DNA from: Methylotenera versatilis 7
Lineage (GTDB): Bacteria; Pseudomonadota; Gammaproteobacteria; Burkholderiales; Methylophilaceae
Assembly (NCBI RefSeq): GCF_000799165.1
Contig: NZ_JUGF01000002.1
Span: forward strand, 434,001 to 498,000
Direction of reading: 5' to 3'
DNA length: 64,000 bases
Part shown: piece by piece, positions 21,520 to 36,390 of the stretch
Layout of the letters: each line of letters begins with the position of its first letter
Position numbering within the stretch: the first letter of the stretch is position 1
Translations under genes and position numbers: made by a program
Notes under the pieces: generated by a model
What the model was told of the DNA's origin: nothing
Database searches by the model: none
Seen by the model: the letters and a program-made list of their open reading frames with translations, nothing else

Positions 21520-22371
21520 TTATTTGATTTTAAGCTTAACCCAGTATTTGCGTGCCAGCCAAATCACGGGAATACCAATCAATAACCAAGGAATCAAACC
21601 AACGACGAAAGTAATCACAGCACCAAAACTTTCCATCATCACCTGCCCTGCGTTTTTCAGGGCGCGCGCTACTGGCGCAAAAAAACCTTGTTCTGTAATA
21701 CCTTGGCTGGCGGTGAAATTAATATTCACCGCGACTAAATCGGTTTCCAATGCCAACACTTTGCGAATACTGGCAATGCTATCTAACTCACTTTGCGTAT
21801 TCGCCAACTCACGCTCTACATCGATAATATCTTTAAACTTGGCCGTTTTATCACCTAACATCAAGCGCAGTCTATCCCTCAAATCAGTTAGATTTTTAAT
21901 TCGCGCATCCGCATCCATTACTTGAATCGTTTTATCTTCGCTGTCTCGGCCATGCTGCATCACCTCGCCATTCTCAGCTAATCCAGTCAGAAATATGCTG
22001 ACATTTCTAGGTGGCACACGCAAACTTAAGGATGCAGATGGCGGGCTATACGGCGTTTCGCGATTGTAATTGGCGCTGAGCATTTGGCAGCCTAACGCCT
22101 CACAATGTTTGATGGCTGCATCAAAACTCGCCTGCATTTTTTCTGGTGCCGTTTCAATTTGTAGATGATGACGCAACGCGATGTATTTTTTAGCGGCGAC
22201 ATTAATTGGCTCGCTAATCTCAGTCAAACCTAGTTCAGCGCCACCTGCTGAATCAGCAGCCATTTTCGCTGTTGGGGCAGATCGTGCCATTTCGAACGAG
22301 TTAGATGTAGCATCCTGCTTATTACAAGCTATTAACAACAAGGTCAGTAGTGCAATTAAACCGTACTTCAT
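21520..22371 (-). CDS. DUF4349 lipoprotein
   Basis: 283 residues. A lipoprotein signal ends at LLIACNKQ (Cys about 16). The body holds the DUF4349 pattern: YIALRHHLQIETAPEKMQ, LSLRVPPRNVSIFLTGL, a long coiled coil (about 155-215, DADARIKNLTDLRDRLRLML and IDVERELANTQSELDSI) and one C-terminal transmembrane helix (AVITFVVGLIPWLLIGIPVIW) with a basic end. Function unknown; the architecture suggests an envelope-spanning protein. It is monocistronic as far as can be seen: 157 bp from the receptor gene and isolated from ruvA by a terminator. Confidence 0.82.
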   Translation of the reverse strand: MKYGLIALLTLLLIACNKQDATSNSFEMARSAPTAKMAADSAGGAELGLTEISEPINVAAKKYIALRHHLQIETAPEKMQASFDAAIKHCEALGCQMLSANYNRETPYSPPSASLSLRVPPRNVSIFLTGLAENGEVMQHGRDSEDKTIQVMDADARIKNLTDLRDRLRLMLGDKTAKFKDIIDVERELANTQSELDSIASIRKVLALETDLVAVNINFTASQGITEQGFFAPVARALKNAGQVMMESFGAVITFVVGLIPWLLIGIPVIWLARKYWVKLKIK

Positions 22372-22466
22372 GTGCGAATCCTTTTTCTCGTTATAAAGCT
22401 AATCACGCTTTTATATTGCCAAATTGTACCTTTTTAATGTGTAAAAGCTAGCAATGGCAAGGCATA

Positions 22467-22503
22467 TAAAAAAGCCGCCACTTATTTAGTGACGGCTTTT
22501 TTA
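22467..22503. terminator. bidirectional terminator downstream of ruvA
   Basis: AAAAAAGCCGCCACT, loop TATTT, AGTGACGGCTTTTTTAT forms a ten-pair stem with one mismatch, flanked by A-run and T-run. On the minus strand it ends the yebC-ruvC-ruvA transcript 31 bp past the ruvA stop. Confidence 0.85.
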
Positions 22504-22533
22504 TCAACATTGATTAATTAACTCACAATCAAC

Positions 22534-23112
22534 CTATTTAGAAAGCAATTTAAGCGATTGCCTAATGCCTTCTGAAACAGACAAATCTTTTGGTAATAAT
22601 TTAATCGTTGCTAGCGCTTCCTTATCGTTATAGCCCAGGGCCAATAAGGCATTTAATATATCGCTAGTGGCAGATTTTGGCTGGGCAATGCCAACACCGT
22701 TGACACCATTAATAGAGAATTTATCTTTGAGCTCAAGCAAAAGACGTTCTGCCGTTTTTTTGCCGATACCCGGAATACGCGTCAACATGGCGACCTCCTG
22801 CAGATTGACCGCATTAATTAAATCTTCAATGCTAACGCCACTTAAAATTGACAATGCAGACTTTGCACCTATGCCATTCACCTTAAGCAATTGTTTAAAC
22901 GTACTTTTTTCTTGCTCTGAACCAAATCCATACAATAGCTGTGCATCTTCACGCACCACCATATAAGTCAGCAACTGCACTTTTGCGCCAATCTCCGGCA
23001 GATTATAAAAAGTACTCATCGGCACTTCCACCTCATAACCCACGCCTGCGCAATCAATCAGCACTTGCGGCGGTGTTTTTTCAATCAGAATACCGTTTAA
23101 TCGTGCAATCAT
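22534..23112 (-). CDS. ruvA: Holliday junction DNA-binding protein RuvA
   Basis: 192 residues. N-terminal OB fold ([31 protein letters not shown]), two helix-hairpin-helix motifs ([13 protein letters not shown] near 79 and [16 protein letters not shown] near 114) and a C-terminal three-helix domain ([15 protein letters not shown]) that contacts RuvB. Known role: tetramer that binds the four-way junction and loads RuvB. The start overlaps the ruvC stop by four bases. Confidence 0.97.
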
Positions 23113-23669
23113 ACTAATCGTCCATTCTTAACTCTGTATCCCGCTGTAGCGAGTTTTCCTAATCCTTGTCCGCCGTGCGCATGGCAGATCGCACAAGCTA
23201 ATGCATCGGCAGAATCTGGTTTTGGGGTTGCGGGAAGGTTAAGTAAGCGCTTGACCATTTCCTGCACTTGCTCTTTTTGTGCATGACCATTACCGACAAC
23301 AGCCTGTTTAACTTGCAATGCAGTATATTCCGCCACGGTTAAATCACGAATCACCGCAGCACTGATTGCAGCACCGCGCGCCTGACCAAGTAATAAAGTC
23401 GATTGCGGATTTACATTGACGAATACTTTCTCAATTGCAACTTGGTTAGGCTGGTAAGTATCGATTACCTCAAACAGACCATCCAAGATGATTTTTAGGC
23501 GAGCAGGTAATTCTTCTCTATCCTCTTCGCCATCTATTTTATTCTTTTTGCCGCTAGCTGTTTTGATCGTTCCGCTAGCAATATAAGTAATTTTCTCACC
23601 TATTTTTTCAATCACACCAAAGCCAGTCAATCTAAGGCCCGGATCAATTCCTAGTATGCGAGTAATCAC
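23109..23669 (-). CDS. ruvC: crossover junction endodeoxyribonuclease RuvC
   Basis: 186 residues. Catalytic acidic residues are in GIDPGLR (Asp7), AIEKVFVN (Glu) and [15 protein letters not shown] (two Asp). Known role: resolves Holliday junctions by paired nicks, working with RuvAB. A basic insertion [17 protein letters not shown] lies near residues 37-53. The start is GTG at 23669, sharing one base with the yebC stop (TAGTG), so the genes are translated in series. Confidence 0.96.
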
Positions 23670-24394
23670 TATTCTTCAATTAGAGCGGTAGTGTAGACAT
23701 CCTGTACATCATCCAAATCTTCCAATGCGTCTAAGATTTTTTGCATTTTAATCGCATCATCACCCATAAATTCAACTTCATTCAGCGGCTTCATGGTCAC
23801 TTCACTTAATACAGGTTTTAAGCCAGCCGCTTCCAGCGCTTCTTTTACAGTCAGAAAATCATTTGGTGCCGTAATCACTTCAATACTGCCATCTTCATCT
23901 GTCACAACATCTTCCGCGCCTGCTTCCAGTGCAGCTTCCATCACTTTGTCTTCGCTGATGCCGGGTTCAAAAACCAAGCTGCCACAGTGTTTAAACATAA
24001 AAGCCACTGAGCCATCAGTGCCTAAATTACCACCAAACTTTGTCAGCGCATGACGAACATCTGCCACCGCGCGCTGTTTATTATCAGTCAAGCAATCAAT
24101 AATAATGGCGGCACCATTGATGCCGTAGCCTTCATAACGGATTTCTTCGTAATTCACGCCTTCCAATTCACCCGTGCCTTTTTTAATAGCGCGAGTAATG
24201 TTGTCTGCTGGCATGTTTTCTTCTTTGGCCTCAGCAACTGCGGCGCGTAAGCGTGGATTCATGCTGATATCGCCGCCACTTAAGCGGGCTGCGACAGTGA
24301 TTTCTTTAATGATTTTGGTGAAAATTTTGCCGCGTTTGGCGTCTTGGCGCCCTTTGCGGTGTTGGATATTTGCCCATTTACTATGTCCTGCCAT
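23669..24394 (-). CDS. yebC: YebC/PmpR-family transcriptional regulator
   Basis: 241 residues, with the family opening [18 protein letters not shown], then [33 protein letters not shown], and [23 protein letters not shown]. Acidic C-terminal domain with [19 protein letters not shown]. Known: members act as DNA-binding regulators or, as TACO1-like factors, assist translation of proline stretches. Placement before ruvC is the standard proteobacterial order. Confidence 0.96.
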
Positions 24395-24492
24395 GCTATT
24401 CCCTTGATATTTTTAGATTCTTCGGCATTTTATCATAGGCTTTAAATGTGCGAGAAATGTGGGCTTTAAAGACTCAAATCACGAATAATGGA

Positions 24493-25812
24493 TTAATGCG
24501 CACTCATGTGCTGTGCTTCAATTTTAGGATAAACCCGCACCAGCAACACACGTGGGCCGACCATTTTCTTCACCACCACTGAAAATTGGTCAAACTCAAT
24601 GCGCTGACCTTCTTCCGGCAATTCGGTTAATTTCCACAAAACCAATCCCGCAACCGTATCGGCATCGTCTGATTCGATATCAATACCCAGCGTGCGTTCC
24701 AACGTGTTGATTGACAATGAACCCTTGCCCAGCAGAGACCCATCATCTAATTTAGTCCATTCACTTTGCGATTGCCTGAATTCATCATGAATATCACCAA
24801 CCAAGGCAGACAACAAATTGTCCAATGTAATAAATCCCACTGGCGGATTATCGGGATACGCAACCACCGTAAAATGTGGCGCACCACGCTGCAGTTTTCT
24901 AAAAAGCTCAGTCGCTAATGTATTGGGCGAAACCATTTTCACCGGCCTCATCAGGCTTTGAATATCGGTAAATTGGCTGTCTTTTGTGAGCGCGATAAAA
25001 ATATCTTTAATATGAACAATACCAATCACTTGTCCATCACTCGCCACCAGCGGGTACCGGCTGTAGCGATGCTGCACGATGCGTTCCATATTCTGCTTAA
25101 AGGTTTCGTCCGCCTGCAAAGCGATGGCTTCATGAAAAGGGTGCATCAGATCTGACACGGCTAACTCTCTAAAATCAATCGCCTGCGCCAGCACTTTCCA
25201 TTCTGATGAGCTGAAACTTTCATTGGGATGCGAACTACGCAAAATAAGCTTCAATTCCTCATTGGAATATTGCACCTCATGCCCGGCTTTGTTTTTTAAC
25301 TTTAAGACATTAATGATCATATTTGAGCTTTTGTTTAATACCCAAATAGCAGGGAACATTAACCAGTAAAATCCATACAATAATGGCGCTGTCCACAAGC
25401 TCACACGTTCTGCCATGCGGATAGCCAATGTTTTAGGTACTAATTCACCTAGCACAATATGCATATAAGAAATGGTAAAAAAGGCGACGACAAACGCAAT
25501 GCCGTGAATAAGTTTTTGACTTTCCACCCCAACGCTGACTAAAGCTGGCTCAATTAATGCCGCAAAGGCAGGTTCACCCACCCAGCCTAAGCCCAGCGAT
25601 GCTAACGTGATTCCCAGCTGACAAGCAGATAAATATGCATCTAAACTGCCATGTACTTTGGCCAGCATTTTGCCACGCCAGCCTAAATTATTTGCAATGG
25701 CACGTACGCGCGTGCTACGAAGCTTGACTAGTCCAAACTCCGCTGCAACAAAAAAACCATTCAACAGAACTAGTAGTACGGCGAGAAAAATTAAAAACAG
25801 ATTGGCGCTCAT
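24493..25812 (-). CDS. CNNM/CorC-type membrane protein with CBS pair
   Basis: 439 residues. N-terminal DUF21/CNNM membrane domain (1-190; about four hydrophobic segments, AAEFGLVKLRSTRVRAIA, YLSACQLGITLASLGLGWVGEP, VLGELVPKTLAI), a CBS pair (about 210-335; RYSRYPLVASDGQVIGIVHIKD and FTVVAYPDNPPVGFITLDNL) and a C-terminal CorC_HlyC domain (about 350-430, ending VLLVRVYP). Known: the family is linked to magnesium/cobalt efflux or polyamine export; older names call it hemolysin-like without toxin activity. It stands alone between yebC (99 bp away) and the DMT exporter gene. Confidence 0.87.
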   Translation of the reverse strand: MSANLFLIFLAVLLVLLNGFFVAAEFGLVKLRSTRVRAIANNLGWRGKMLAKVHGSLDAYLSACQLGITLASLGLGWVGEPAFAALIEPALVSVGVESQKLIHGIAFVVAFFTISYMHIVLGELVPKTLAIRMAERVSLWTAPLLYGFYWLMFPAIWVLNKSSNMIINVLKLKNKAGHEVQYSNEELKLILRSSHPNESFSSSEWKVLAQAIDFRELAVSDLMHPFHEAIALQADETFKQNMERIVQHRYSRYPLVASDGQVIGIVHIKDIFIALTKDSQFTDIQSLMRPVKMVSPNTLATELFRKLQRGAPHFTVVAYPDNPPVGFITLDNLLSALVGDIHDEFRQSQSEWTKLDDGSLLGKGSLSINTLERTLGIDIESDDADTVAGLVLWKLTELPEEGQRIEFDQFSVVVKKMVGPRVLLVRVYPKIEAQHMSAH

Positions 25813-26036
25813 GGCTGGTAAAAGTACTTTTTATTATGCAAATAACAGCCTTCAAGTTTAACATGAAGTGGTTATTCTTAAATGACAGCTACAAAGCAGG
25901 CTGATTAATATAGCGAATAGGCGCGATGGATACTTGTTAAATGCTTAATTAAGACAGATAGTCTAGTTAAATTCTTGGTAAAACTTCTGACTTAACCTTT
26001 TATTTAACCTAATTTGATTGGTTAAGTTTTGAATCA

Positions 26037-26957
26037 CTAGCTGTCTTGCGCCATAGCTGGTTCTATCGGTTTATGTTGACGAATGCTGATATAAGAAATG
26101 GTGACGAGTGACAAGCCGATTAATAGCATGCCAATTGTTTCCATACGATCAGGCACTTCGTTTAGCTGTATCCAAGCTGCTATTACGCCAATCACAGGCG
26201 CCAACATAGATGCCATGCTGGCCACGCCTGCAGGCAAACGTTGCAGCGCATATAACCATAATAACCAAGCCAATGCACCACTTAAAAACACGTTAAACAA
26301 CACCGAGCCAATAAAATAACCAGTCCATTGAATCGGCGGTGCAGGTACGATAAAGGCAATTGCCAACATCGGCACTGAGCCTAGCAACATTGGCCAAGCG
26401 CTTAAGTTTAGCAAATCCAAATTCGGGCGACGCTGATGCAGTTTTTTAGAAATAATCGCCGATAACGCCCATGAAACGCCTGAACATAAGGCCAAAAACA
26501 TGCTGAATCCATCTGCCTTGATATGCAGCGGATCAAAAATCAGCACCATGCCAAATATTCCGGAGAATACTGCCAACCATTGCCAGCCTTGCACTTTTTC
26601 ACCCAACATTGGCCATGCGAATAACATCACCCAAAATGGCATGGTGTAAGTCAAAACAGCAGTTTTGCCTGCGCCACCTTCTACCAGCGCCCATACCAGC
26701 AACCCTGTAAAGCCAATTGTTTGCAGCAAACCCAGCACTAGCATGGTGGGAAACTCTTTTAAGCCCATTGGTCTTTTAGTGAAGTACATCACCACAAACA
26801 ACACAATTCCGCCAAAAAAAGTACGTATCGCGGCAAACTGAAAAGGCCCTGCATATTGCAGCGCGCTTTTCATCACCACCCAGTTATAACCCCAAATAAT
26901 GGTTAATATCAGCAGCGCGATAAACGCGCGAATAGTCACTTTTGTGCTGTTTTGCAT
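26037..26957 (-). CDS. EamA/DMT-family permease
   Basis: 306 residues with ten predicted helices arranged as two EamA repeats: the first starts at LIWGYNWVVMKSALQYAGP, the second at FLALCSGVSWALSAIISKK. Short charged C-terminal tail. Known role: the family exports metabolites or amino acids; the substrate cannot be assigned. It is the last of three same-strand genes (MarR, SnoaL-like, permease; gaps 41 and 84 bp), so it may be under the MarR regulator. Confidence 0.82.
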   Translation of the reverse strand: MQNSTKVTIRAFIALLILTIIWGYNWVVMKSALQYAGPFQFAAIRTFFGGIVLFVVMYFTKRPMGLKEFPTMLVLGLLQTIGFTGLLVWALVEGGAGKTAVLTYTMPFWVMLFAWPMLGEKVQGWQWLAVFSGIFGMVLIFDPLHIKADGFSMFLALCSGVSWALSAIISKKLHQRRPNLDLLNLSAWPMLLGSVPMLAIAFIVPAPPIQWTGYFIGSVLFNVFLSGALAWLLWLYALQRLPAGVASMASMLAPVIGVIAAWIQLNEVPDRMETIGMLLIGLSLVTISYISIRQHKPIEPAMAQDS

Positions 26958-27041
26958 ACGTTTTTATACCTTATTTGCGCGCTGTAGTTTTAATAGGCTT
27001 AAATTTATCGACTGGAATTTGACTGTATTTTAATTAATGCA

Positions 27042-27419
27042 TTAATTCCAAATATGCGTTACTGCTTTCCAAACACCATCAGCTTGTTTGCGATAAACAA
27101 GATGCACATTGCCACCAAAAGTTTGGCGCACACCCTCTGCATCAATCATCGCGCCAGCCCAATTACCACGTTGATAGGCTAAATTGCCATCGGCTACTGC
27201 CTCAGTCAATGTAAGTTTATGATCAATAACACCTGCTTCAATCAAACCTGCAAAAAATGCCTGAATTGCTTCCGCACCAACAACTGGCGCACCAGCCGGT
27301 GCCGGCATTACTGTTGCGTTTGCATCATATAATTGCGCAATATCTGCTGGTTTTTTTGCATTAAATGCCTGGTCAAACTTTGCGTTGATTGCTGTTATTT
27401 CTGCTTGAATATTGCTCAT
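27042..27419 (-). CDS. SnoaL-like / DUF4440 small protein
   Basis: 125 residues in an NTF2-like fold: AEITAINAKFDQAFNAKKP, AQLYDANATVMPAPAGAPVVG, VHLVYRKQADGVWKAVTHIWN. The pattern matches DUF4440/SnoaL-like proteins that often have no proven reaction. No catalytic residues could be named with confidence. It lies between marR and the permease gene and probably shares their transcript. Confidence 0.75.
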   Translation of the reverse strand: MSNIQAEITAINAKFDQAFNAKKPADIAQLYDANATVMPAPAGAPVVGAEAIQAFFAGLIEAGVIDHKLTLTEAVADGNLAYQRGNWAGAMIDAEGVRQTFGGNVHLVYRKQADGVWKAVTHIWN

Positions 27420-27460
27420 TTGATTACTCTCTTTTCAAAAATATTGATATTAACTTGGGG

Positions 27461-27964
27461 TTAAATAAGTGCAGGAATACCTTTATGGATTATTCCTAAT
27501 AACTGCTGAAGCTGCACGCGCTTGTCTTCATCTAAAGCCTGCATACACTGTCTTAAACGCCGATAGTAATCCGGCATCACTACGTCCAATTTCGCCTGTC
27601 CTGCGCTGGTTAATTGTATTTTTACGCTACGTCTATCTTCTTTGGCAAATACTCTGGTCACCAAACCATGCTGTTCTAAGCCGTCCAACAATCCAGTCAT
27701 GCTTGCGCGCTTTACACCTAACTTGTCTGCCAAAATGGATGGCGTAGAAATTCCTGACTCTTCGCGCATTAACAAAATTAGCACCCACCAACGCCCTTGC
27801 AATAAATCGTGTTTACTTAAGCACGCATCCAATGCAAGTGATAAATCAGTCGCCACACGCAGCAAATATAAAAAGCCAGATATCGCCGTCACATCCGCAT
27901 CAGGATAACGGTCAGCGAACTTGTCTAATATTTCGGGTGTTGGAAGGTCTCGTAATTGCAGCAT
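27461..27964 (-). CDS. MarR-family transcriptional regulator
   Basis: 167 residues. Helical dimerisation ends flank a winged helix-turn-helix: GISTPSILADKLGVKRASMTGLLDGLEQHGLV (recognition helix at RASMTGLLDGL), followed by the wing FAKEDRRSVKIQLTSAGQAKL, with the family's D-x-R-S/R motif. Known role: ligand-responsive repressor of neighbouring genes. A perfect 20-bp palindrome at 27978-27997 lies 14 bp upstream of its start, so autoregulation is likely. Downstream genes are SnoaL-like and a DMT permease. Confidence 0.88.
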   Translation of the reverse strand: MLQLRDLPTPEILDKFADRYPDADVTAISGFLYLLRVATDLSLALDACLSKHDLLQGRWWVLILLMREESGISTPSILADKLGVKRASMTGLLDGLEQHGLVTRVFAKEDRRSVKIQLTSAGQAKLDVVMPDYYRRLRQCMQALDEDKRVQLQQLLGIIHKGIPALI

Positions 27965-27977
27965 AGTTAGATATATT

Positions 27978-27997
27978 ATAGTTAGCTAGCTAACTAT
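27978..27997. promoter_or_regulatory. perfect 20-bp palindrome, probable MarR operator
   Basis: ATAGTTAGCTAGCTAACTAT is its own reverse complement. A further half-site ATAGTTAG lies at 27963-27970, overlapping the marR start codon. The palindrome lies between marR and the divergent CBS gene (starts 131 bp apart). Length and symmetry fit MarR-family sites. Confidence 0.7.
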
Positions 27998-28095
27998 GTC
28001 AACAACTTTATTGTTATTGATTTATTTATGGCCTTAGATATTGGCTAAATTATTTATCGGAGTATATTTAAACAGCTAACTCGCTGGAGAAGAAC

Positions 28096-28527
28096 ATGAA
28101 AACTTTACAACAAGTGTTAAACGATAAGAAGCATAAAGAGATCATTAGCATCGCGCCCAATCGCCCTGTCTTTGATGCGTTAGTTATCCTGGCTGAGTAT
28201 AAGATCGGCGCCTTAGCTGTGGTACAAGATGGCAGATTAGTCGGTATTTTCTCAGAACGGGATTACGCGCGCGAAGTGGTATTAAAAGGCCGCTCATCCA
28301 AAACGACCCAAGTAGCGGAGGTCATGACGCAAAAGGTAATTACAGGTCAACCTAACGATTTAGTTGAAGCAACACTGAGCATGATGAGTGAAAAGCGTAT
28401 TCGCCATTTGCCGGTGATGCATGACAAAATGATACTAGGCATGTTGTCGCTGGGCGATTTGGTGAAAGAGACAATTGCCTATCAGCAACGCTTAATCAAA
28501 GAGCTAGAGCAATATATTTGTGGCTAA
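28096..28527 (+). CDS. CBS-domain protein
   Basis: 143 residues made almost only of two CBS motifs: about 15-70 (VFDALVILAEYKIGALAVVQDGRLVGIFSERDYAREV) and 80-135 (DLVEATLSMMSEKRIRHLPVM then GMLSLGDLVKETI). Long quotations are avoided; the key elements are the GALAVV strand, SERDYAR and the S-L-G-D-L segment that bind adenosyl ligands. Known: stand-alone CBS pairs sense AMP/ATP/NADH or SAM. The start ATG at 28096 has GGAGAAGAAC just upstream. Divergent from marR, so possibly under the same palindrome. Target enzyme unknown. Confidence 0.85.
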   Translation: MKTLQQVLNDKKHKEIISIAPNRPVFDALVILAEYKIGALAVVQDGRLVGIFSERDYAREVVLKGRSSKTTQVAEVMTQKVITGQPNDLVEATLSMMSEKRIRHLPVMHDKMILGMLSLGDLVKETIAYQQRLIKELEQYICG

Positions 28528-28720
28528 AACTTAAGATTTCTAACCTAATTAATGACACTAGGCTCATGAAAATACGTAAGTGGAGTTAATGCCAAACTGT
28601 AGGTATTTAACTAAACACCGCGCGCATAATGCAGTCATACAAACAAGCAACGAATTAAAGAATTTTATTTATGTTTGTTGTGAATTTGAATGTGTACTTA
28701 ATTTTAAAAGGAGATTTATC

Positions 28721-28792
28721 ATGTGGACAACACCAGCAGCTACAGAAATGCGTTTTGGTTTTGAAGTGACTATGTACGTCATGAATAAATAA
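28721..28792 (+). CDS. pqqA: PQQ precursor peptide PqqA (orphan)
   Basis: A 23-residue peptide. Start ATG at 28721 is preceded by AAAAGGAGATTTATC, a strong ribosome-binding site at good spacing. The peptide opens MWTTPAATEMRFGFEV and carries Glu15 and Tyr19 in E-V-T-M-Y, the two residues that become the PQQ skeleton. Known role: ribosomally made precursor cross-linked by PqqE and trimmed to pyrroloquinoline quinone, the cofactor of methanol dehydrogenases. No pqqB, C, D or E is within the window. A terminator follows 20 bp later. An in-frame open stretch upstream (from 28580) has no ribosome-binding site and is not family-like. Confidence 0.92.
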   Translation: MWTTPAATEMRFGFEVTMYVMNK

Positions 28793-28811
28793 GCCAGAAT
28801 TAAGTCATTTC

Positions 28812-28840
28812 AAAAAGGGAGCAATTGCTCCCTTTTTTAT
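28812..28840. terminator. bidirectional terminator between pqqA and yjbQ
   Basis: AAAAAGGGAGCAATTGCTCCCTTTTTTAT: a perfect stem GGGAGCAATTGCTCCC with A-run before and T-run after. It ends pqqA on + and the convergent yjbQ (stop at 28851) on minus. Confidence 0.9.
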
Positions 28841-28850
28841 TTAACCAAGC

Positions 28851-29270
28851 CTAGTCGCCAATAATCTTAACCAGCACGCGCTTTTTACGTCTGCCGTCAA
28901 ACTCGCCATAAAATATCTGTTCCCAAGGCCCAAAATCCAAGCGGCCTTCGGTAATCGCCACCACCACCTCACGCCCCATAATCTGGCGCTTCATGTGCGC
29001 ATCGGCGTTATCTTCGCCCGTATCGTTATGCCGATAGTTGCTGATTGGTTCATGCGGCGCAAGACGCTCAAGCCATTGCGTGTAATCGTGATGCAATCCA
29101 CGCTCATCGTCATTAATAAACACGCTGGCAGTAATATGCATGGCATTCACCAAAACCAAACCTTCGCGTACACCACTTTCTCGCAAGCATTCGTTAATCT
29201 GCTCGGTGATACGAATAAATGCCACGCGTGTTGGCGGATTAAACCAAAGTTCTTTACGATAGCTTTTCAT
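28851..29270 (-). CDS. YjbQ-family protein (secondary thiamine-phosphate synthase)
   Basis: 139 residues, normal for UPF0047. Seen: the H-x-T-A-S-V-F-x-N-D motif ([21 protein letters not shown], around residues 44-64), [18 protein letters not shown] around 79 and [29 protein letters not shown] quoted here in parts: the [12 protein letters not shown] block and E-F-D-G. Known: E. coli YjbQ has weak thiamine-phosphate synthase activity in vivo; its main role is unclear. Monocistronic, convergent with pqqA. Confidence 0.86.
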
Positions 29271-29354
29271 ATTTTGTTCCTTAATTTTCCTATTACTGCG
29301 TCAATTTTAGCACTGCAAGCTATTAACACAGATGACATTAATCATTTTTTGGCA

Positions 29355-29383
29355 TAAAAAAGGCTTCTCAAAAGAAGCCTTTT
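29355..29383 (-). terminator. terminator of the SoxYZ-like carrier gene
   Basis: AAAAAAGGCTTCT, loop CAAA, AGAAGCCTTTTAA. The stem is GGCTTCT/AGAAGCC extended by A-T pairs; on the minus strand a T-run follows. It lies 30 bp past the stop at 29413. Confidence 0.85.
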
Positions 29384-29412
29384 AACCAGGGCTTTACATG
29401 CAATTTTGATGG

Positions 29413-30222
29413 TTAACTTTTCACTTCAACCACATGTGTAAAGCTTTTCCCCTCATTATCAGTCGCCAGCACTTCTAATTTACCCGGCTCTTTTGGTACA
29501 AAATTAAATTTAAAATAAGGATCTTCCGCTGTGCCAACGCCCACATCTACTGTCATCACAGGTTTACCATTGTAAGTAAATTCGGTTTTTTTAATATAAA
29601 AAGCCGGTACATATCCTTGCGAAACCAAATCGCGCTGCAAGCCAGTGCGCATCACGTGTTTGATATTAAATGTAGCTGGCGTTGCCGCGCCAAATTTTGC
29701 TGGCGTTTCTACATTCATTTTAATTTTACCCGCCACTGCCCGGATTGCCACTTCGTCATTCTCTACCGCACCACCACAACCGCCAGCTGCACGTACTTCA
29801 CGTGAAGCTAAATACAATTTTCCGTCCGCTGTTTCGCCCACCAAGCGCACAAAACCGTCAGTCTCAAAACGAATCCGTGTCGATAAATGAAAATCGCCCA
29901 GTGCATCCGTTAAATGATAAGTCGCAGTTAGTGGAATAGGATTTGAATCTACGAAAACATACACCTTTTTAATGGCCACACCATTCGCTGCTGCATTATC
30001 AATCGTATACGTCACGGGCACCTGCGCGCCACTTTCAGCACGGCGTGGCGCATCAATCTTCATAAAAGTCACTTCTTGCATATCGCGTTTTGCAAAAAAC
30101 GCTTCTTTCATCACAGGCCATAATTCTGGGTTGGATTCAGCAAAAACAGGCAGACTGAAAACCAATAGAATAGTGCATCTCAGGGTATGCTTTAAAAAAT
30201 TATTATTGAATAACTTGTTCAT
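29413..30222 (-). CDS. quinoprotein dehydrogenase-associated SoxYZ-like carrier protein
   Basis: 269 residues from ATG at 30222, chosen because GGGGA lies eight bases upstream; an ATG at 30237 would add five residues. A signal peptide ends at SLPVFAES. The N-terminal SoxY-like half (VTFMKIDAPRRAESGAQVPV, VDSNPIPLTATYHL) ends at REVRAAGGCGGAVEND, where GGCGG is the carrier-cysteine motif; the C-terminal SoxZ-like half has HVMRTGLQRDLVSQG and GVGTAEDPYFKFNFVP. Known: the fused SoxY-SoxZ family co-occurs with PQQ alcohol dehydrogenases in methylotrophs; in Sox systems SoxYZ carries sulfur intermediates on that cysteine. Role here is unknown. It has its own terminator and no Sox gene beside it. 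Confidence 0.88.
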   Translation of the reverse strand: MNKLFNNNFLKHTLRCTILLVFSLPVFAESNPELWPVMKEAFFAKRDMQEVTFMKIDAPRRAESGAQVPVTYTIDNAAANGVAIKKVYVFVDSNPIPLTATYHLTDALGDFHLSTRIRFETDGFVRLVGETADGKLYLASREVRAAGGCGGAVENDEVAIRAVAGKIKMNVETPAKFGAATPATFNIKHVMRTGLQRDLVSQGYVPAFYIKKTEFTYNGKPVMTVDVGVGTAEDPYFKFNFVPKEPGKLEVLATDNEGKSFTHVVEVKS

Positions 30223-30357
30223 TTTTACATTCCCCATATTTGCAATACGACTTGCGCACTACATTACTGGCAATAACGCTTGGTTGATAGTTTGGATTAG
30301 AAAACGTAATTTAAGTTTTATTCAAATTGCTGTATGTGACCGACATCACACAATTGA

Positions 30358-30783
30358 TTATTGGTTCGGATCGCCAGAAGGTCGCATGACATAATCAGGA
30401 TTCCAAAATTCTTCAAAATTCAGTTCCACGCCATTACCCGCCGGGTCTTTTAAATTAATCTGCCGCACGCCATTAGCCAGAATACGTGTGGTGAATGGCA
30501 CATTATTTTTGGTTAAGTGCGCTTCCATTGCAGGCATATCAGTGCAGGTAAAAGACACATGATCATAAGTACCATGCACATTGAGTTGTGGCGGCGTGGC
30601 GGTTTTATATTCCGCCAGATGCACCACATCGTTATTGCCAATATACAGCCAATAACCATAAGTAGTACTCGCCACACGTTTACCTACCGTTAAGCCAAGA
30701 ATATCGCAATAAAAATCACGCAGCTTAAACATGGTCTCGCGGTCAGTGCGGAAATTAACGTGGTTGATTTCGGTAAGTGGCAT
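30358..30783 (-). CDS. VOC (glyoxalase/bleomycin-resistance fold) protein
   Basis: 141 residues. The start MPLTEINHVNFRTDRE (ATG at 30783, five bases past the Mrr stop) is typical; a TTG at 30807 would overlap the previous gene. Seen: FYCDILGLTVGKR near 24, LNVHGTYDHVSFTC near 67 and a C-terminal LKDPAGNGVELNFEEF, giving metal-ligand His and Glu positions of the VOC fold. Known: metal-dependent lyases, isomerases or dioxygenases; no substrate can be assigned. Likely cotranscribed with the Mrr gene. Confidence 0.82.
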   Translation of the reverse strand: MPLTEINHVNFRTDRETMFKLRDFYCDILGLTVGKRVASTTYGYWLYIGNNDVVHLAEYKTATPPQLNVHGTYDHVSFTCTDMPAMEAHLTKNNVPFTTRILANGVRQINLKDPAGNGVELNFEEFWNPDYVMRPSGDPNQ

Positions 30784-30788
30784 TTTAT

Positions 30789-31643
30789 TTATATACTTTC
30801 GAACCAAGATTCATCAATAGTTATCTTTTCAACAAGCTCAATCTTCATTCCTAATTCAAGCTCTCTAAGCTTGTCAGCTAACTCATCACCATCAACCAAA
30901 TCAATTGGTGGAGCACCGTCTCTGGTGGCTTCTTTAAGTGCTGCAGCCGTGAATGTTCCTGTGGTAATAAAAAGACCTTTGTCAGCCCTGCCTACCATCG
31001 CCCCACGAAAATCTCTAATTTCACTTGCCCCTACTGAACCCTTATAGCGCTTACATTGAAATAACACGTGAAAACTCATAAAACCATTAATTCGAGCAAT
31101 GCCTTTACCATCTATGCCGCCATCACCTGTTTTTCCAGTGACCTCAACCTGAACAAAACCTGACTCTCTTAAAAGTCTTTGAATAAGCCGCTCAAAAGCT
31201 GACGGGTCTAGTTTTTGCGTAAGTACGACTGAAAGCTGTTGCTTCCATGAGGCCTCTTCAACAGCTTCAATTAAAACATCATTGATTTGCAATTGTTCAT
31301 TATTTTGTTGTATTTTATCTAAGCCTCTAACATACGTAACGACTTCAAGAGGACTAAATACTGGATTATTACGCGCTTTTTCTGTTAAAGCCCAAACACC
31401 TCTGCTAGAGTTTTCAAGAAAACCGAATTTTTTTAAATAAGTTCTTGCCCATGCCAATCTATAACCAATTTCTGTTTGGCTGCTTTTTTCTGGGTCATGG
31501 AGTTGATTAAGTATATTCTCTGAAAATTTAGTTATCTCTATGACTTTTGAATAAATCTCTTCAATTGAACCCGAACCACCAAGCTCATTTAACGCACCGA
31601 CTAGTGGAATCATCAACTCATCAAAAGAAGGTAACTTATTCAT
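30789..31643 (-). CDS. Mrr-type restriction endonuclease (type IV)
   Basis: 284 residues. N-terminal winged-helix domain (SFDELMIPLVGALNELGGSGS, IGYRLAWARTYLKKFG) and a C-terminal Mrr_cat nuclease domain (about 150-265). The PD-(D/E)xK centre is visible as GDGGIDGKG followed by VLFQCKRYKGSVG, i.e. Asp and the Q-x-K pair, and a GLFITTGTFT strand. Known: E. coli Mrr cleaves methylated DNA without a partner methylase; it is 304 residues. No methylase or specificity gene is nearby. It begins 3 bp after aspS ends, so it is read from the aspS transcript. Could also be a DNA-repair nuclease. Confidence 0.85.
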   Translation of the reverse strand: MNKLPSFDELMIPLVGALNELGGSGSIEEIYSKVIEITKFSENILNQLHDPEKSSQTEIGYRLAWARTYLKKFGFLENSSRGVWALTEKARNNPVFSPLEVVTYVRGLDKIQQNNEQLQINDVLIEAVEEASWKQQLSVVLTQKLDPSAFERLIQRLLRESGFVQVEVTGKTGDGGIDGKGIARINGFMSFHVLFQCKRYKGSVGASEIRDFRGAMVGRADKGLFITTGTFTAAALKEATRDGAPPIDLVDGDELADKLRELELGMKIELVEKITIDESWFESI

Positions 31644-31646
31644 TTT

Positions 31647-33437
31647 CTAAGCCGCTGGATTTTGAGTGCGAACGCGAATATGCAATTCTCTCAATTGCTT
31701 CTCATCCACCTCATTCGGCGCATTGGTCATTAAACATTGCGCGCGCTGGGTTTTTGGGAAGGCAATCACATCACGGATAGACTCTGCGCCAGCCATCAAT
31801 GTTACCAGACGGTCTAAACCGAAGGCCAGGCCGCCATGCGGAGGTGCGCCGTATTGCAAGGCATCCAGCAAGAAACCGAACTTCTCTTGTGCTTCCTCTT
31901 TGCTGATTTTTAGTGCGTCGAATACTTTGGATTGCACATCCTGTTTATGAATACGCACTGAACCGCCGCCCACTTCCCAGCCGTTTAATACCATATCGTA
32001 GGCTTTTGAAAGGGCAGCACCTGGATTAGAAGTTAACAAGTCCTCGTGACCATCTTTTGGTGCGGTAAACGGGTGATGCAATGCTACCCAGCGGTCGTTT
32101 TCTTCATCATGTTCAAACATTGGGAAATCCACCACCCACAATGGCGCCCATGCGCGACCATCTACATGGCCTTTATCGTGCCCGACTTTTAAGCGTAATG
32201 CACCTAGTGCTTCGTTAACCACTTTGGTTTTATCTGCGCCGAAGAAGACAATGTCGCCATTTTGTGCACCGGTGCGGTCGATAATCGCTTGCAGTGCTGT
32301 AACGTGAATGTTTTTAACGATTGGGCTTTGCAGGCCTTCTTCATTTAATTTAGTAATGTCGTTTATTTTGATATATGCCAAACCTTTTGCGCCGTAAATT
32401 TTGACGAATTCGGTATAAGCATCGATTTCACTTCTTGCAATCGCCGCGCCATTTGGTACGCGTAAAGCTGCCACTCGGCCGCCAGCCATATTAGCTGCGC
32501 CTGCGAATACTTTAAAATCTACATCTTTCATCACATCTGAAAGCTCTGTGATTTCTAAAGTCACGCGCATATCAGGCTTATCTGAACCATATCGATTCAT
32601 TGCTTCACTGAATGGCATACGCGGGAATTTAGCTGGCAAATCCACGTTCTGCACCGATTTAAGCATTTGTCGAATCATTTCTTCGACAATGTCCATAATC
32701 TCGTTTTCACTCAAAAATGAAGTCTCAATATCCACTTGGGTGAATTCCGGCTGACGATCTGCGCGCAAGTCTTCATCGCGGAAGCATTTAGTGATTTGGA
32801 AATAACGGTCAAAACCTGACACCATTAGCAATTGTTTGAATAATTGCGGCGATTGCGGCAATGCAAAAAACTGGCCGGCATGTACGCGGCTTGGTACTAG
32901 ATAATCACGCGCGCCTTCTGGCGTACTGCGCGTTAACATCGGCGTTTCCACTTCAATAAAACCATTAACATCTAAATAATCGCGCAAAGTTTTAGCCACG
33001 CGATAACGCAACATCATATTTTTCTGCATCGCTGGACGGCGTAGATCGATGTAGCGATGTTCAAGTCTTACGGTTTCAGTCAGGTTTTCGTCATCTAACA
33101 TAAATGGCGGCGTAAGCGATGCGTTTAAAATCTCGATTTCAGTCGCAATCATTTCTACTTCACCAGTAGATAAGTTAGCATTCACTGCGCCTTCTGGACG
33201 CGCGCGTACAACACATGTCACTTTAAGTACATATTCACTGCGCACACTTTCGGCAATCGCAAACGCAGCTTGCGTATCTGGGTTGACCACGATTTGTGCC
33301 ATACCTTCACGGTCACGCAAATCGATAAAAATCACACCACCATGATCGCGACGGCGATGCGCCCAGCCGCATAAACTAACAGTTTGGCCGACGTGGCTGC
33401 GGTTTAAGTGGCCGCAATAATGTGTACGCATAGTCAT
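31647..33437 (-). CDS. aspS: aspartyl-tRNA synthetase
   Basis: 596 residues from ATG at 33437 (MTMRTHYCG); ATG at 33431 is the usual family start, and an upstream TTG at 33455 seems unlikely. Seen: the OB-fold anticodon domain ([23 protein letters not shown]), class II motif 1, motif 2 ([16 protein letters not shown] around 215-230), the GAD insertion domain and motif 3 ([23 protein letters not shown]). Known: charges tRNA-Asp; bacterial-type enzymes of this length may also charge tRNA-Asn when the amidotransferase is present. It follows DUF502 and FmdB genes, the common betaproteobacterial order. Confidence 0.97.
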
Positions 33438-33487
33438 AAAATAAATTTCGTTCAAAAATAATGTTAAGTCTGTTGATTAGATAAAAA

Positions 33488-34102
33488 TTAAAGCGGTAAT
33501 TCTCGTGTTTTGCGGTCTTTTGGCGTTACGGTACCCATGCTGATAATGTATTTTAAAGCTTCGTCCACGCTCATATCCAGCTCAATCACATCCGCCTTGG
33601 GCAGCATCAGAAAAAAGCCAGAAGTCGGGTTTGGCGTAGTGGGCACGTAAACACTGACATAATCCCCCACCAGATGATTACTCACATCGCCACCAGGCAC
33701 GCCAGTTAAGAAAGCAATCGTCCAACTGCCTTGGCGTGGATATTGAATTAATAAAGCCTTGCGAAACGCATTGCCAGAATCTGAAAACAAAGTATCAGAC
33801 ACTTGCTTGACACTGGAATAAATGCTTTTTACGAACGGTACGCGCGAAAGTAAATTTTCCCACAAAGCAATTAATTGTTGGCCAAAGATATTGGTGGCAA
33901 TAAGGCCTGTAACAAAAATAATCAGCAAAGTGAGAATTGCACCCAAGCCAGGCATATTAAAACCAAATACATTTTCAGGCTGCCAAGCTTCCGGCAGCAA
34001 TAGCAAGCTTTGGTCCATGGTCTGAATGAGCGTCGCCACCACCCAAATGGTGATAAACAACGGCACCAACACCAGCAAGCCAGTAATAAAGTATTTTTTC
34101 AT
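33488..34102 (-). CDS. DUF502 membrane protein
   Basis: 204 residues. Two N-terminal hydrophobic helices (about 5-25 LVLVPLFITIWVVATLI, 52-72 LGAILTLLIIFVTGLIATNI) and a soluble C-terminal part with KSIYSSVKQVSDTLF, FLTGVPGG, VSVYVPTTPNPTSG, and FLMLPKADVIELDMSVDEAL. This is the DUF502 family signature. Function unknown. It sits between fmdB and aspS on the same strand, 50 bp and 19 bp away. Confidence 0.9.
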   Translation of the reverse strand: MKKYFITGLLVLVPLFITIWVVATLIQTMDQSLLLLPEAWQPENVFGFNMPGLGAILTLLIIFVTGLIATNIFGQQLIALWENLLSRVPFVKSIYSSVKQVSDTLFSDSGNAFRKALLIQYPRQGSWTIAFLTGVPGGDVSNHLVGDYVSVYVPTTPNPTSGFFLMLPKADVIELDMSVDEALKYIISMGTVTPKDRKTRELPL

Positions 34103-34121
34103 GTTAATTCAATGGATTGGA

Positions 34122-34397
34122 TTAATGACAGGCACAACCGGTTTGGCAGGCAGTGGACGCATCGGTTTTGGTCGTTGATTCTGCAGATTCACTTGAAGAC
34201 GACTTACTTACCTTTTTATCTTTAAAATCAGTCGCATACCAGCCACTACCACTTAGTTGAAAACTAGGTGCAGAAAGCATTTTAGAAAAGGTTTCTTGAT
34301 TGCAATTAGGACATACTGTGGTGCTTGAATCGCTTATTTTGCGCAATAACTCTAGCTTGTGACCACAACTGGTACATTGGAAATCATAAATCGGCAT
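34122..34397 (-). CDS. FmdB-family zinc-ribbon protein
   Basis: 91 residues. Two CxxC pairs, CTSCGH (9-14) and CPNCNQ (34-39), define the zinc ribbon of the FmdB/CxxC_CXXC_SSSS family; the tail is serine-rich and ends TGCACH with further cysteines. It is homologous to the FmdB regulator of formamidase/amide genes; no target is known here. Same strand as DUF502 and aspS, 19 bp upstream. Confidence 0.9.
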   Translation of the reverse strand: MPIYDFQCTSCGHKLELLRKISDSSTTVCPNCNQETFSKMLSAPSFQLSGSGWYATDFKDKKVSKSSSSESAESTTKTDASTACQTGCACH

Positions 34398-34492
34398 GAT
34401 TTTGGCTTATAAATTAACGTTTTAGTTGAAAGTAAAATTATAACTGATGTGCATCAATAGTTTTTTGTTTACCTATTCACTTAGGGTAAATT

Positions 34493-34996
34493 CTAAAAAG
34501 GAATATCGTCCTCAAAATCATCAAAATTACCACCACCAGTTTGCGTTGCTGCAGGTTTAGCAGCAGGCTGACTTGCTGGTGCTGATTGACGTGACGGCGC
34601 TTGGTTAAACTCATCTTGTCCGCCACCTTGATCCATGCCACCATCATAACTCGCATTACCACCGCCATCGCGGCCACCTAGCATTTGCATGCTGTCTGCA
34701 ATAATTTCGGTGCTATAACGGGTTACGCCATCTTTTTCCCATTTACGCGTTTGTAAACGGCCCTCTACATAAACTGGGCGGCCTTTTTTAAGGTATTCGC
34801 CTGCGATTTCGGCTAATTTGCGATACATCACAATATTGTGCCATTCGGTTTTTTCCTGTTTAACGCCTGATTTATCTTTCCAGTTTTCAGTCGTGGCGAT
34901 ACTAAAGTTAGCCACCGCTTCGCCGTTCGGCATATAGCGCACTTCCGGGTCGCGCCCTAAATTACCCACTAAAATCACTTTGTTGACTGATGCCAT
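34493..34996 (-). CDS. ssb: single-stranded DNA-binding protein
   Basis: 167 residues. OB fold from [20 protein letters not shown] through [18 protein letters not shown] and [16 protein letters not shown]; then a Gly/Gln/Pro-rich linker and the acidic C-terminal tip DDFEDDIPF that binds partner proteins. Known role: coats single-stranded DNA in replication, recombination and repair. The start shares one base with the stop of the MFS gene (TAATG), and uvrA is divergent beyond it, a standard arrangement. Confidence 0.98.
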
Positions 34997-36390
34997 TATC
35001 TGCTCCCTATCAATTTTAAAATATTCTGCTCTATTAACGTTTGGCGCTCAACACTTTGCTGATTGTTCACTTTCACTATCAGCATGTCCTCTTGGGCGAT
35101 TGCGACTGCTTCATACACACCCTCCATCTGCGCAACTTTATTGGCTAATGCAAGTGCTTGCGACTCATCAAATGAGTTCAAATGATACATCTTTGTGCGT
35201 ACAGCGGGTGGTGTTTTCATTCCAAAAGTCAACAGTAACCAGATGCCAATTAATATTGAGCAAAAAATAAATACGGCAGAATAATCAAAGCGATGTGATA
35301 GATACCCGCCCACCACTGCACCTAAAAATACGCCAAATGATTGCGCTGTACTGTGAATGCCCATCGCCGTGCCTTTGGAAGCGGCAGGTGCCATTTTTGA
35401 AATTAATGACGGCAACGACGCTTCTAAAATATTAAAAGCGGTGAAATAAATCAGCAACGAAACAACAACGCCCCAGAAATGATGAATAGTGTTCGCAAAC
35501 ATCAATTGCGCCACTAACATTAAAGCCACAGCGCCGATAAATACCAATTTTAATTTCGCGCGTTTTTCACCAATAATAATCGCTGGCAACATCAGCACAA
35601 ATGAAACGACCAATACTGGCAAATAAATTTGCCAATGTGAATTGACACTCATGCCGCTGGTTTCAGTCAAGGCAAACGGCACCACAATAAACATCGCCAT
35701 TTGCGCGGCATGTAATGAAAAAGTACCAAAATTTAAACGCAATAATTGTTTATCTTTTAGCACTGCTTTCATTTTGCTTGGTGCAGTTTGCGCATCTGAG
35801 TGAAAATGGCTGGCGACTGGATCTGGCACGTAATACTTAACTACCAAAATAGCCAATAATGACAAGACTGCTGTCATCCAGAAGATTCCGGATACACCAA
35901 TCCATTGATTCAGCAATGGTCCAGCCACAAGCGATAGCGCAAATGTGATGCCAATCGTTCCGCCAATCATCGCCATCGCTTTAGTGCGATGTTCTTCCCG
36001 CGTTAAATCGGCAACTAATGCGGTGACAACAGCAGAAACCGCCCCAGCCCCCTGAATTGCACGGCCAATAATCACCATGTAAATATCGGTCGCCAATGCG
36101 GCAATCACGCTACCGATAATAAATAAAATCAAACCGATATAAATGAGTCTTTTGCGGCCATATTTATCGGAAGCGATACCGAAAGGCAATTGCAGTAAAA
36201 CCTGTGTTAAGCCGTATGCGCCAAGCGCCAAGCCGATCAACGTATGATTGCTGCCGCCTTTTAATGTTTCAGCATATACCGCAAAAATGGGTAAAATTAA
36301 AAACATGCCCAACATGCGCAAACCATAAATTGAGGCCAAGCTGATGGTAGAACGCAATTCAGTTCGCGTCATTTTGTCGGAAATTTGCAT
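34996..36390 (-). CDS. MFS transporter with C-terminal ferredoxin-like domain (YajR-like)
   Basis: 464 residues. Twelve predicted helices span about 15-395; [12 protein letters not shown] in the second loop is the MFS motif A and [12 protein letters not shown] motif B. A 65-residue soluble tail ([18 protein letters not shown] then [14 protein letters not shown]) follows the last helix, as in E. coli YajR (YAM domain). Known role: a drug/proton antiporter-like carrier of unknown substrate. Read through to ssb with a one-base overlap; divergent from uvrA with 88 bp between starts. Confidence 0.86.

What the first reader, a model, noticed from the sequence alone, without database searches (positions are those of the whole stretch)
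28721..28792. Orphan pqqA: a single PQQ precursor gene apart from pqqBCDE
The 23-codon gene has a near-perfect ribosome-binding site, Glu15 and Tyr19, and its own terminator, but no other pqq gene is nearby. A free-standing pqqA lets the precursor be made in large excess and controlled apart from the enzymes. Genomes may hold several such copies that automatic gene finding misses.
Basis: partly seen in the sequence, partly recalled or inferred. Interest (0 to 1): 0.6.

Follow-up and report, generated by a model that had tools for sequence, protein, structure and literature searches.

The report
Spare PQQ-precursor gene of a methylotroph
This is a real stand-alone gene for the 23-residue peptide from which the methanol-enzyme cofactor PQQ is made, one of three copies with the same product in this bacterium; such spare copies are already known, but many of them in this bacterial family, and many in its viruses, turn out to share one conserved control site.

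Summary
28721-28792 (+) encodes a full PqqA (PF08042 40.3 bits, cut-off 21.1) with Glu15, Tyr19, a strong ribosome-binding site and a hairpin terminator; none of 16 neighbouring frames scanned is a pqq gene. It is not the only copy: the genome has three pqqA genes with the same peptide, this orphan, a second 137 kb away, and one directly before pqqB-E on another contig. The kind is in print: Methylophilaceae carry 3-12 pqqA copies with one pqqBCDE, and 'orphan pqqA' is an established term.

Beyond that: (1) the CBS-pqqA-YjbQ-SoxYZ site is intact in 4 of 15 genomes of the genus (own included) and in Methylophilaceae bacterium 11, decayed in one, empty in eight. (2) pqqA copies share a ~75-bp upstream element (dyad plus -10-like box); in 22 genomes of 20 other genera, 61 of 66 hits of its model lie before a pqqA, though only 62 of 118 pqqA genes were marked. 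(3) Phages carry orphan pqqA with the same dyad: 39 of 98 viral contig upstreams against about 1% of controls. The window copy has a weak, diverged version, so co-regulation of this copy is unproven.

The parts
28721..28792 (+). orphan pqqA, 23 codons plus stop, PQQ precursor peptide MWTTPAATEMRFGFEVTMYVMNK
   Evidence: third-position-only divergence from paralogues and orthologues
28708..28714 (+). ribosome-binding site AAGGAGA
   Evidence: read from sequence; AGGA or GGAG present before 59 of 60 pqqA genes of the genus
28562..28637 (+). upstream pqqA element: weak dyad GCTCATGAAAATACGTAAG (28562-28580), -10-like CATAAT (28625-28630), presumed start of transcription near 28637
   Evidence: aligned with 57 other pqqA upstreams; R1 29.5 bits with its own relatives in the model but only 6.3 bits, E 0.79, when this copy, its three orthologues and two paralogues are left out, still the best place in the window; dyad 5.9 bits left out, rank 18 on both strands of the window
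28622..28655 (+). block around the -10-like box, identical at all but one position in four orthologues
   Evidence: alignment (GCGCAYAATGCAGTCATACAAACAAGCAACGAAT)
28812..28838 (.). hairpin terminator AAAAAGGGAGCAATTGCTCCCTTTTTT between convergent pqqA and YjbQ
   Evidence: fold z -3.68; terminator-like hairpin after 59 of 59 testable pqqA of the genus against 1.5% of shuffles; not listed by the consensus scan
28096..28527 (+). flanking CBS-domain protein (neighbour, marks the site)
   Evidence: PF00571; synteny
28851..29270 (-). flanking YjbQ (UPF0047) protein (neighbour, marks the site)
   Evidence: PF01894 and TIGR00149; found in 15 of 15 genomes of the genus
29413..30237 (-). quinoprotein-dehydrogenase-associated SoxYZ-like carrier (neighbour)
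   Evidence: TIGR04557 233.8 bits, cut-off 140

Best explanation
An authentic extra copy of pqqA in a Methylotenera-like Methylophilaceae bacterium. It is a self-contained unit (own upstream region, ribosome-binding site, terminator) and its peptide is identical to that of the pqqB-E-linked copy, so it feeds the same single set of enzymes: PqqD presents the peptide, PqqE cross-links Glu15 to Tyr19, and the later enzymes finish PQQ for the cell's several PQQ alcohol dehydrogenases. Many copies in the family, and many in phages, share one upstream dyad with a -10-like box, best read as the site of one regulator; the window copy keeps a diverged form and may respond differently. Shown: gene, copies, identity, element, distribution of the site. 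Inferred: transcription, use by PqqD/PqqE, the regulator.
For: Family match and Glu/Tyr. Three pqqA and one pqqE over cut-off in the genome. 60 full-length pqqA of 15 genomes of the genus: 44 distinct coding sequences give only 3 peptides; 16 of 23 third positions vary against 1 first and 2 second positions. 121 of 121 family genomes have pqqA, 1-12 matches, median 4, 118 of 121 with two or more; pqqE at E 1e-60: one in 111, two in 7, none in 3 of 121. Four PQQ alcohol dehydrogenases over cut-off in the genome. Element: EM log-likelihood 443 against 54-58 in 5 shuffled sets; of 66 model hits in 22 genomes of other genera, 61 start 112-153 bp before a pqqA. The site CBS-pqqA-YjbQ-SoxYZ is shared with G007, G008, G014 and Methylophilaceae bacterium 11. 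In print, passages read: PMC4109929, PMC9851590, PMC11317620.
Against: No expression data for this copy. Left out of training, its element scores only 6.3 bits (E 0.79) and its dyad 5.9 bits, so shared control is not demonstrated for it. Eight of 15 genomes of the genus lack a pqqA at this site, one has a decayed one, and two have none with the neighbourhood changed, so the copy is dispensable. 56 of 118 pqqA genes in the other genera had no element hit at E 0.01, and 4 of those 22 genomes had no hit at all. In one search only the best 150 candidates were scored in 20 of 22 genomes, and 150 of 1556 in the own genome, so misses and further targets are possible.
Confidence: 0.88

Rival explanations
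1. A redundant copy on the way out: the window pqqA is intact but weakly or not expressed, a relic of an old duplication that the operon copy and the second orphan make superfluous.
For: Weakest element of the three copies; same site empty in 8 and decayed in 1 of 15 genomes of the genus; the model finds nothing above 2.6 bits at the decayed copy.
Against: Peptide unchanged in the four genomes of the genus with the intact gene, with third-position-only differences, and one residue different in Methylophilaceae bacterium 11; the block at the -10-like box is almost unchanged among the four orthologues while the rest of the leader drifts; ribosome-binding site and terminator kept.
Confidence: 0.2
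2. The peptide has a second job beyond PQQ, for example binding lanthanide or signalling, and orphan copies serve that job.
For: Authors of PMC11317620 suggest PqqA could be part of an alternative lanthanide uptake system and report that expression of orphan pqqA2/pqqA3 changes with the neodymium source (passages read).
Against: The peptide is identical to that of the operon copy in this genome, so nothing in the sequence separates a second role.
Confidence: 0.05
3. Chance small open reading frame, not a gene.
For: Short; one search lists 207 frames of 20 aa or more overlapping 22000-36000.
Against: Family match, codon-position pattern and conserved site.
Confidence: 0.005

Closest known systems
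Multiple pqqA copies of Methylophilaceae (PMC4109929, 2014; passages read)
   Same: 3-12 pqqA copies with, as a rule, one set of the other pqq genes; 'noted before' by those authors; Methylophilaceae 11 listed with 5 copies, and the genome here whose contig has the same length (G056) has 5 matches
   Different: The passages read count copies; they do not describe sites, promoters or history
Multiple pqqA of Methylovorus sp. MP688 (Ge et al. 2015; seen only as a title and through citing passages in PMC6520949, PMC9851590, PMC11317620)
   Same: Five pqqA copies; [quoted passage not shown]
   Different: I could not read the paper, so I do not know whether a shared element was described there
Orphan pqqA2/pqqA3 of Methylorubrum extorquens AM1 (PMC11317620; passages read)
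   Same: Free-standing pqqA called orphan; expression reported apart from the other pqq genes
   Different: Another class of bacteria; no sequence comparison made here
Viral pqqA of Lake Baikal (PMC7678222; passages read)
   Same: pqqA on a virus assigned to methylotrophs
   Different: The passages read do not mention its promoter or pqqA in cultured methylophages

Membership tests
PqqA (PF08042 / TIGR02107) | score over the curated cut-off along the whole model | tested here: met
   40.3 bits against 21.1, positions 1-19 of 19; 38.8 against 20, 1-21 of 21
PqqA (PF08042 / TIGR02107) | Glu and Tyr spaced E-x3-Y that PqqE cross-links | tested here: met
   E15, Y19; that PqqE links Glu and Tyr within PqqA is stated in PMC9851590 (passage)
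PqqA (PF08042 / TIGR02107) | pqqBCDE present in the same genome | tested here: met
   pqqE TIGR02109 502.6 bits at C2:317053; frames on L008 read by eye as pqqB, pqqC and pqqD, not scanned against families
PqqA (PF08042 / TIGR02107) | serves as PQQ precursor in vivo | not testable with these tools
   needs mutants
Orphan pqqA of methylotrophs | pqqA with no other pqq gene beside it while pqqA-BCDE exists elsewhere | tested here: met
Shared pqqA upstream element (defined here) | dyad CTMATGAWWWTCATKAG and -10-like box at fixed spacing, score clear of background | tested here: inconclusive
   dyad met by the two other copies (17.6 and 24.9 bits, 0 of 1000 shuffles each); window copy weak when left out of training
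Rfam RNA element | match over gathering score | tested here: not met
   0 matches in the window; leader folds show no pair with changes on both sides

The most novel reading that the evidence does not exclude
Across Methylophilaceae the scattered pqqA genes form one regulon: a single unidentified regulator reads a conserved dyad about 65 bp before the presumed start of the strong copies, whether orphan or operon-linked, and little else in the genome. Methylotroph phages have taken over both the 23-codon gene and this host site, so that during infection the host's own switch drives extra PQQ precursor. Copy number and site strength then tune precursor supply, and copies come and go while the switch stays.
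Probability: 0.42. Interest if true: 0.6.

Novelty: new member of a known kind. Interest (0 to 1): 0.38.

Why it matters
As given, the finding is one more example of a described habit of methylotrophs. What could matter is the shared element: a site that marks many pqqA genes in host and phage gives a defined DNA bait for finding the regulator of PQQ supply, which the papers seen here do not name for this family. Phage copies suggest that precursor supply is worth carrying, and show that small pqqA genes are missed in deposited phage annotation.

Tried and rejected
Leader RNA element: inverted repeats in the 5' leaders looked suggestive, but consensus folds gave 0 of 6 and 0 of 15 pairs with changes on both sides, and the four leaders folded alone had z 0.45, -0.71, 0.88 and -0.06; dropped. 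Rfam: no match in the window.

Adjacency to a PQQ dehydrogenase: the 602-aa frame at 31647-33455 that I hoped was one is aspartate--tRNA ligase; no PQQ alcohol dehydrogenase over cut-off lies in the window.

Large regulon: the dyad alone, up to one mismatch, gave 13 places in the genome against 6 for the reversed control pattern; in the window a looser pattern gave 5 matches against 2.3 expected. The whole element gave the three pqqA genes and then 16.5 bits, E 0.024, with 150 of 1556 first-look candidates scored. No other target is claimed. The 29.5 bits of the window copy are partly circular; left out it is 6.3 bits, E 0.79. The 5 shuffled sets kept base but not dinucleotide content and used fewer starts (15 against 30).

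Recent gain of the window copy: first favoured because of empty sites; withdrawn when the same site with pqqA was found in Methylophilaceae bacterium 11, another genus here; its dyad is weak too, 7.0 bits, 13 of 1000 shuffles as good. Repeated loss is likelier, but no tree was built.

Regulator identity: the dyad resembles a Fur box in my recollection, and its position about 65 bp upstream of the presumed start suits an activator; neither was tested.

Rows dropped: of 61 pqqA matches in the genus one 11-residue match at a contig end was left out, giving 60; two of the 60 with dyad under 10 bits were left out of the element alignment (58). Phages: 12 records matched; I fetched 8 and scored 7 (6, MEP401): 5 of 7 have the dyad at 12.8 bits or more; MEP401 and MEP402 (118 of 140 upstream bases alike) do not. 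Left unscored: an Acinetobacter record whose next genes are pqqB and pqqC, which looks like host DNA. Not fetched: three further Melnitz records and the second Acinetobacter record.

Full report
What is there. The frame at 28721-28792 encodes MWTTPAATEMRFGFEVTMYVMNK, a full-length PqqA by Pfam and NCBIfam. Upstream is AAAAGGAGATTTATCATG, downstream an 11-pair hairpin with a T run. Neighbours are a MarR regulator, a CBS-domain protein, YjbQ and a quinoprotein-dehydrogenase-associated SoxYZ-like carrier. None of the 16 neighbouring frames scanned between about 21.5 and 36.4 kb is a pqq gene.

Copies. The window lies at C1:434001-498000 of a 2.5-Mb genome in 3 contigs. It holds three pqqA genes: C1:462721 (this one), C1:599549 (second orphan) and C2:314679. 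pqqB begins 210 bp after the start of the last one, followed by frames read as pqqC and pqqD and by pqqE. All three pqqA give the same peptide; the 8, 4 and 8 nucleotide differences between them are all at third positions. The closest named relatives by YjbQ are Methylotenera records.

How general. In the genus, 15 of 15 genomes have pqqA, 1 to 7 matches. In the family, 121 of 121 genomes of at least 90% completeness have it, 1 to 12 matches, median 4; at E 1e-60 pqqE is single in 111, double in 7 and missing in 3. This agrees with print. PMC4109929 says Methylophilaceae tend to have several pqqA and a single copy of the other genes, that this had been noted before, and counts 3 to 12 (passages read). 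PMC11317620 uses 'orphan pqqA' and cites five copies in Methylovorus MP688 (passages). PMC9851590 reports five copies in its Hyphomicrobium strain, three of them separate, one of these among the two best expressed (passages). PMC5784242 reports pqqA1A2 and pqqBCDE responding differently (passages). Ge et al. 2015 I know only from its title and citations. So the finding is a new member of a known kind.

The site in relatives. YjbQ was found in all 15 genomes of the genus. pqqA sits between CBS and YjbQ in four (G000, G007, G008, G014). G001 has a decayed copy with peptide MRATLAVTEMRFGFEVTIYVMNK and no detectable element. In eight (G002-G006, G010-G012) CBS and YjbQ are 22 to 216 bp apart with no pqqA. 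In G009 and G013 CBS was not found next to YjbQ and no pqqA was found there. Methylophilaceae bacterium 11 (JCKJ01000001.1), placed in another genus here, has the same order CBS-pqqA-YjbQ-SoxYZ and a like terminator. The simplest reading is an old orphan lost several times; no tree was built.

Shared upstream element. I compared 160 bp before 60 pqqA genes of the genus (53 after removing alike ones). An 18-bp motif, consensus TCTAATGAAAATCATTAG, came out with log-likelihood 443 against 54-58 for five shuffled sets; 58 of 60 genes reach 10 bits. Lined up on it, information is concentrated in the dyad (columns 2-17), TT at 24-25, ATAG near 37-40 and a GCG-A--AT block at 59-67, with less between; the last looks like a -10 box. 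A sequence-only model of 58 of these (R1) finds in the own genome the three pqqA promoters at 45.8, 39.8 and 29.5 bits and then 16.5 at best (150 of 1556 candidates scored). The independent test is in 22 genomes of 20 other genera, none used in building: 66 hits at E 0.01 or better in 18 of the 22 genomes, 61 of them starting 112-153 bp before a pqqA on the same strand (one of these stands before two pqqA, at 122 and 305 bp); 62 of 118 pqqA genes are so marked, 56 are not (at most 150 candidates scored per genome). One of the five other hits lies before a distant YjbQ homologue without pqqA (L142).

The window copy is the weak case. A model of the remaining 52 sequences, without it, its three orthologues and its two paralogues, gives 6.3 bits, E 0.79, still the best place of the window. 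Its dyad then scores 5.9 bits, rank 18 in the window; another weak site just upstream scores 8.1 bits, 7 of 1000 shuffles as good; the other two copies score 24.9 and 17.6. Yet its -10 region is identical at all but one of 34 positions among four orthologues. So it is probably transcribed, but whether under the same switch is open.

Phages. PqqA matches 12 phage records: 9 named Methylophilales or Methylophilaceae phages, one unassigned spring phage, and two Acinetobacter records. One (P19250A) encodes the identical 23 residues with no annotated gene. With the host-trained matrix, 5 of 7 scored records have the dyad starting 69-110 bp upstream at 12.8-18.3 bits, against shuffle means of -0.7 to -2.3; 0 of 300 shuffles reach the score in four of the five and 3 of 300 in the weakest, and 0 of 46 other windows of each stretch do; MEP401 and MEP402 lack it. 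The full R1 model found only one weak hit in these stretches (13.2 bits), so the phages share the dyad, not the whole element. Among viral contigs (120 of more), 39 of 98 distinct upstreams reach 10 bits against 0.9% of shuffles and 0.55% of other windows of the same contigs. For ten of the 39 contigs I scanned the longest frame; nine match PHROGs, among them portal protein, DNA ligase and a UvsX-like recombinase; four match Pfam. Viral pqqA as such is in print (PMC7678222, passages). The shared site I did not find in print with the searches, of which I saw listings and a few papers' passages; the library holds open-licence papers only.

Mechanism. Identical precursor from three loci feeding one enzyme set is the best-supported picture; the precursor is consumed one per PQQ, so gene copies and promoter strength can set supply. 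This last part rests on established PQQ biochemistry (recalled) and on the citing passage that PqqA availability is rate-determining in Methylovorus, not on tests here.

Noticed in passing
L237-L242, L363 (phage records KX815270.1, MW202481.1, MW452941.1, MT375522.1, OP830907.1, MZ577095.1, OP830906.1): Methylophage-type phages carry a 23-24 codon pqqA that these records do not annotate as such; 5 of the 7 have the host-type dyad upstream.
   Followed up: partly
L364 (CAKLQF020000010.1 106710-109763): A record labelled Acinetobacter phage MD-2021a carries pqqA followed by pqqB and pqqC after a polyphosphate kinase gene; probably bacterial chromosome filed as phage.
   Followed up: no
L099 1357-1425: Decayed pqqA with altered N-terminal half but intact E-x3-Y, at the same site as the window copy in another genome of the genus.
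   Followed up: yes
L142 1501-1556: pqqA-type upstream element at 25.7 bits before a distant YjbQ homologue with no pqqA, in a genome of another genus.
   Followed up: partly
L048 2461 and 2812; L053; L058: Pairs of pqqA genes within about 0.35-3 kb of each other, suggesting local duplication.
   Followed up: no
window 29413-30237: A fused SoxYZ-like carrier of the quinoprotein-dehydrogenase-associated type lies next to YjbQ in 13 of 15 genomes of the genus, although no PQQ dehydrogenase over cut-off is in the window.
   Followed up: partly
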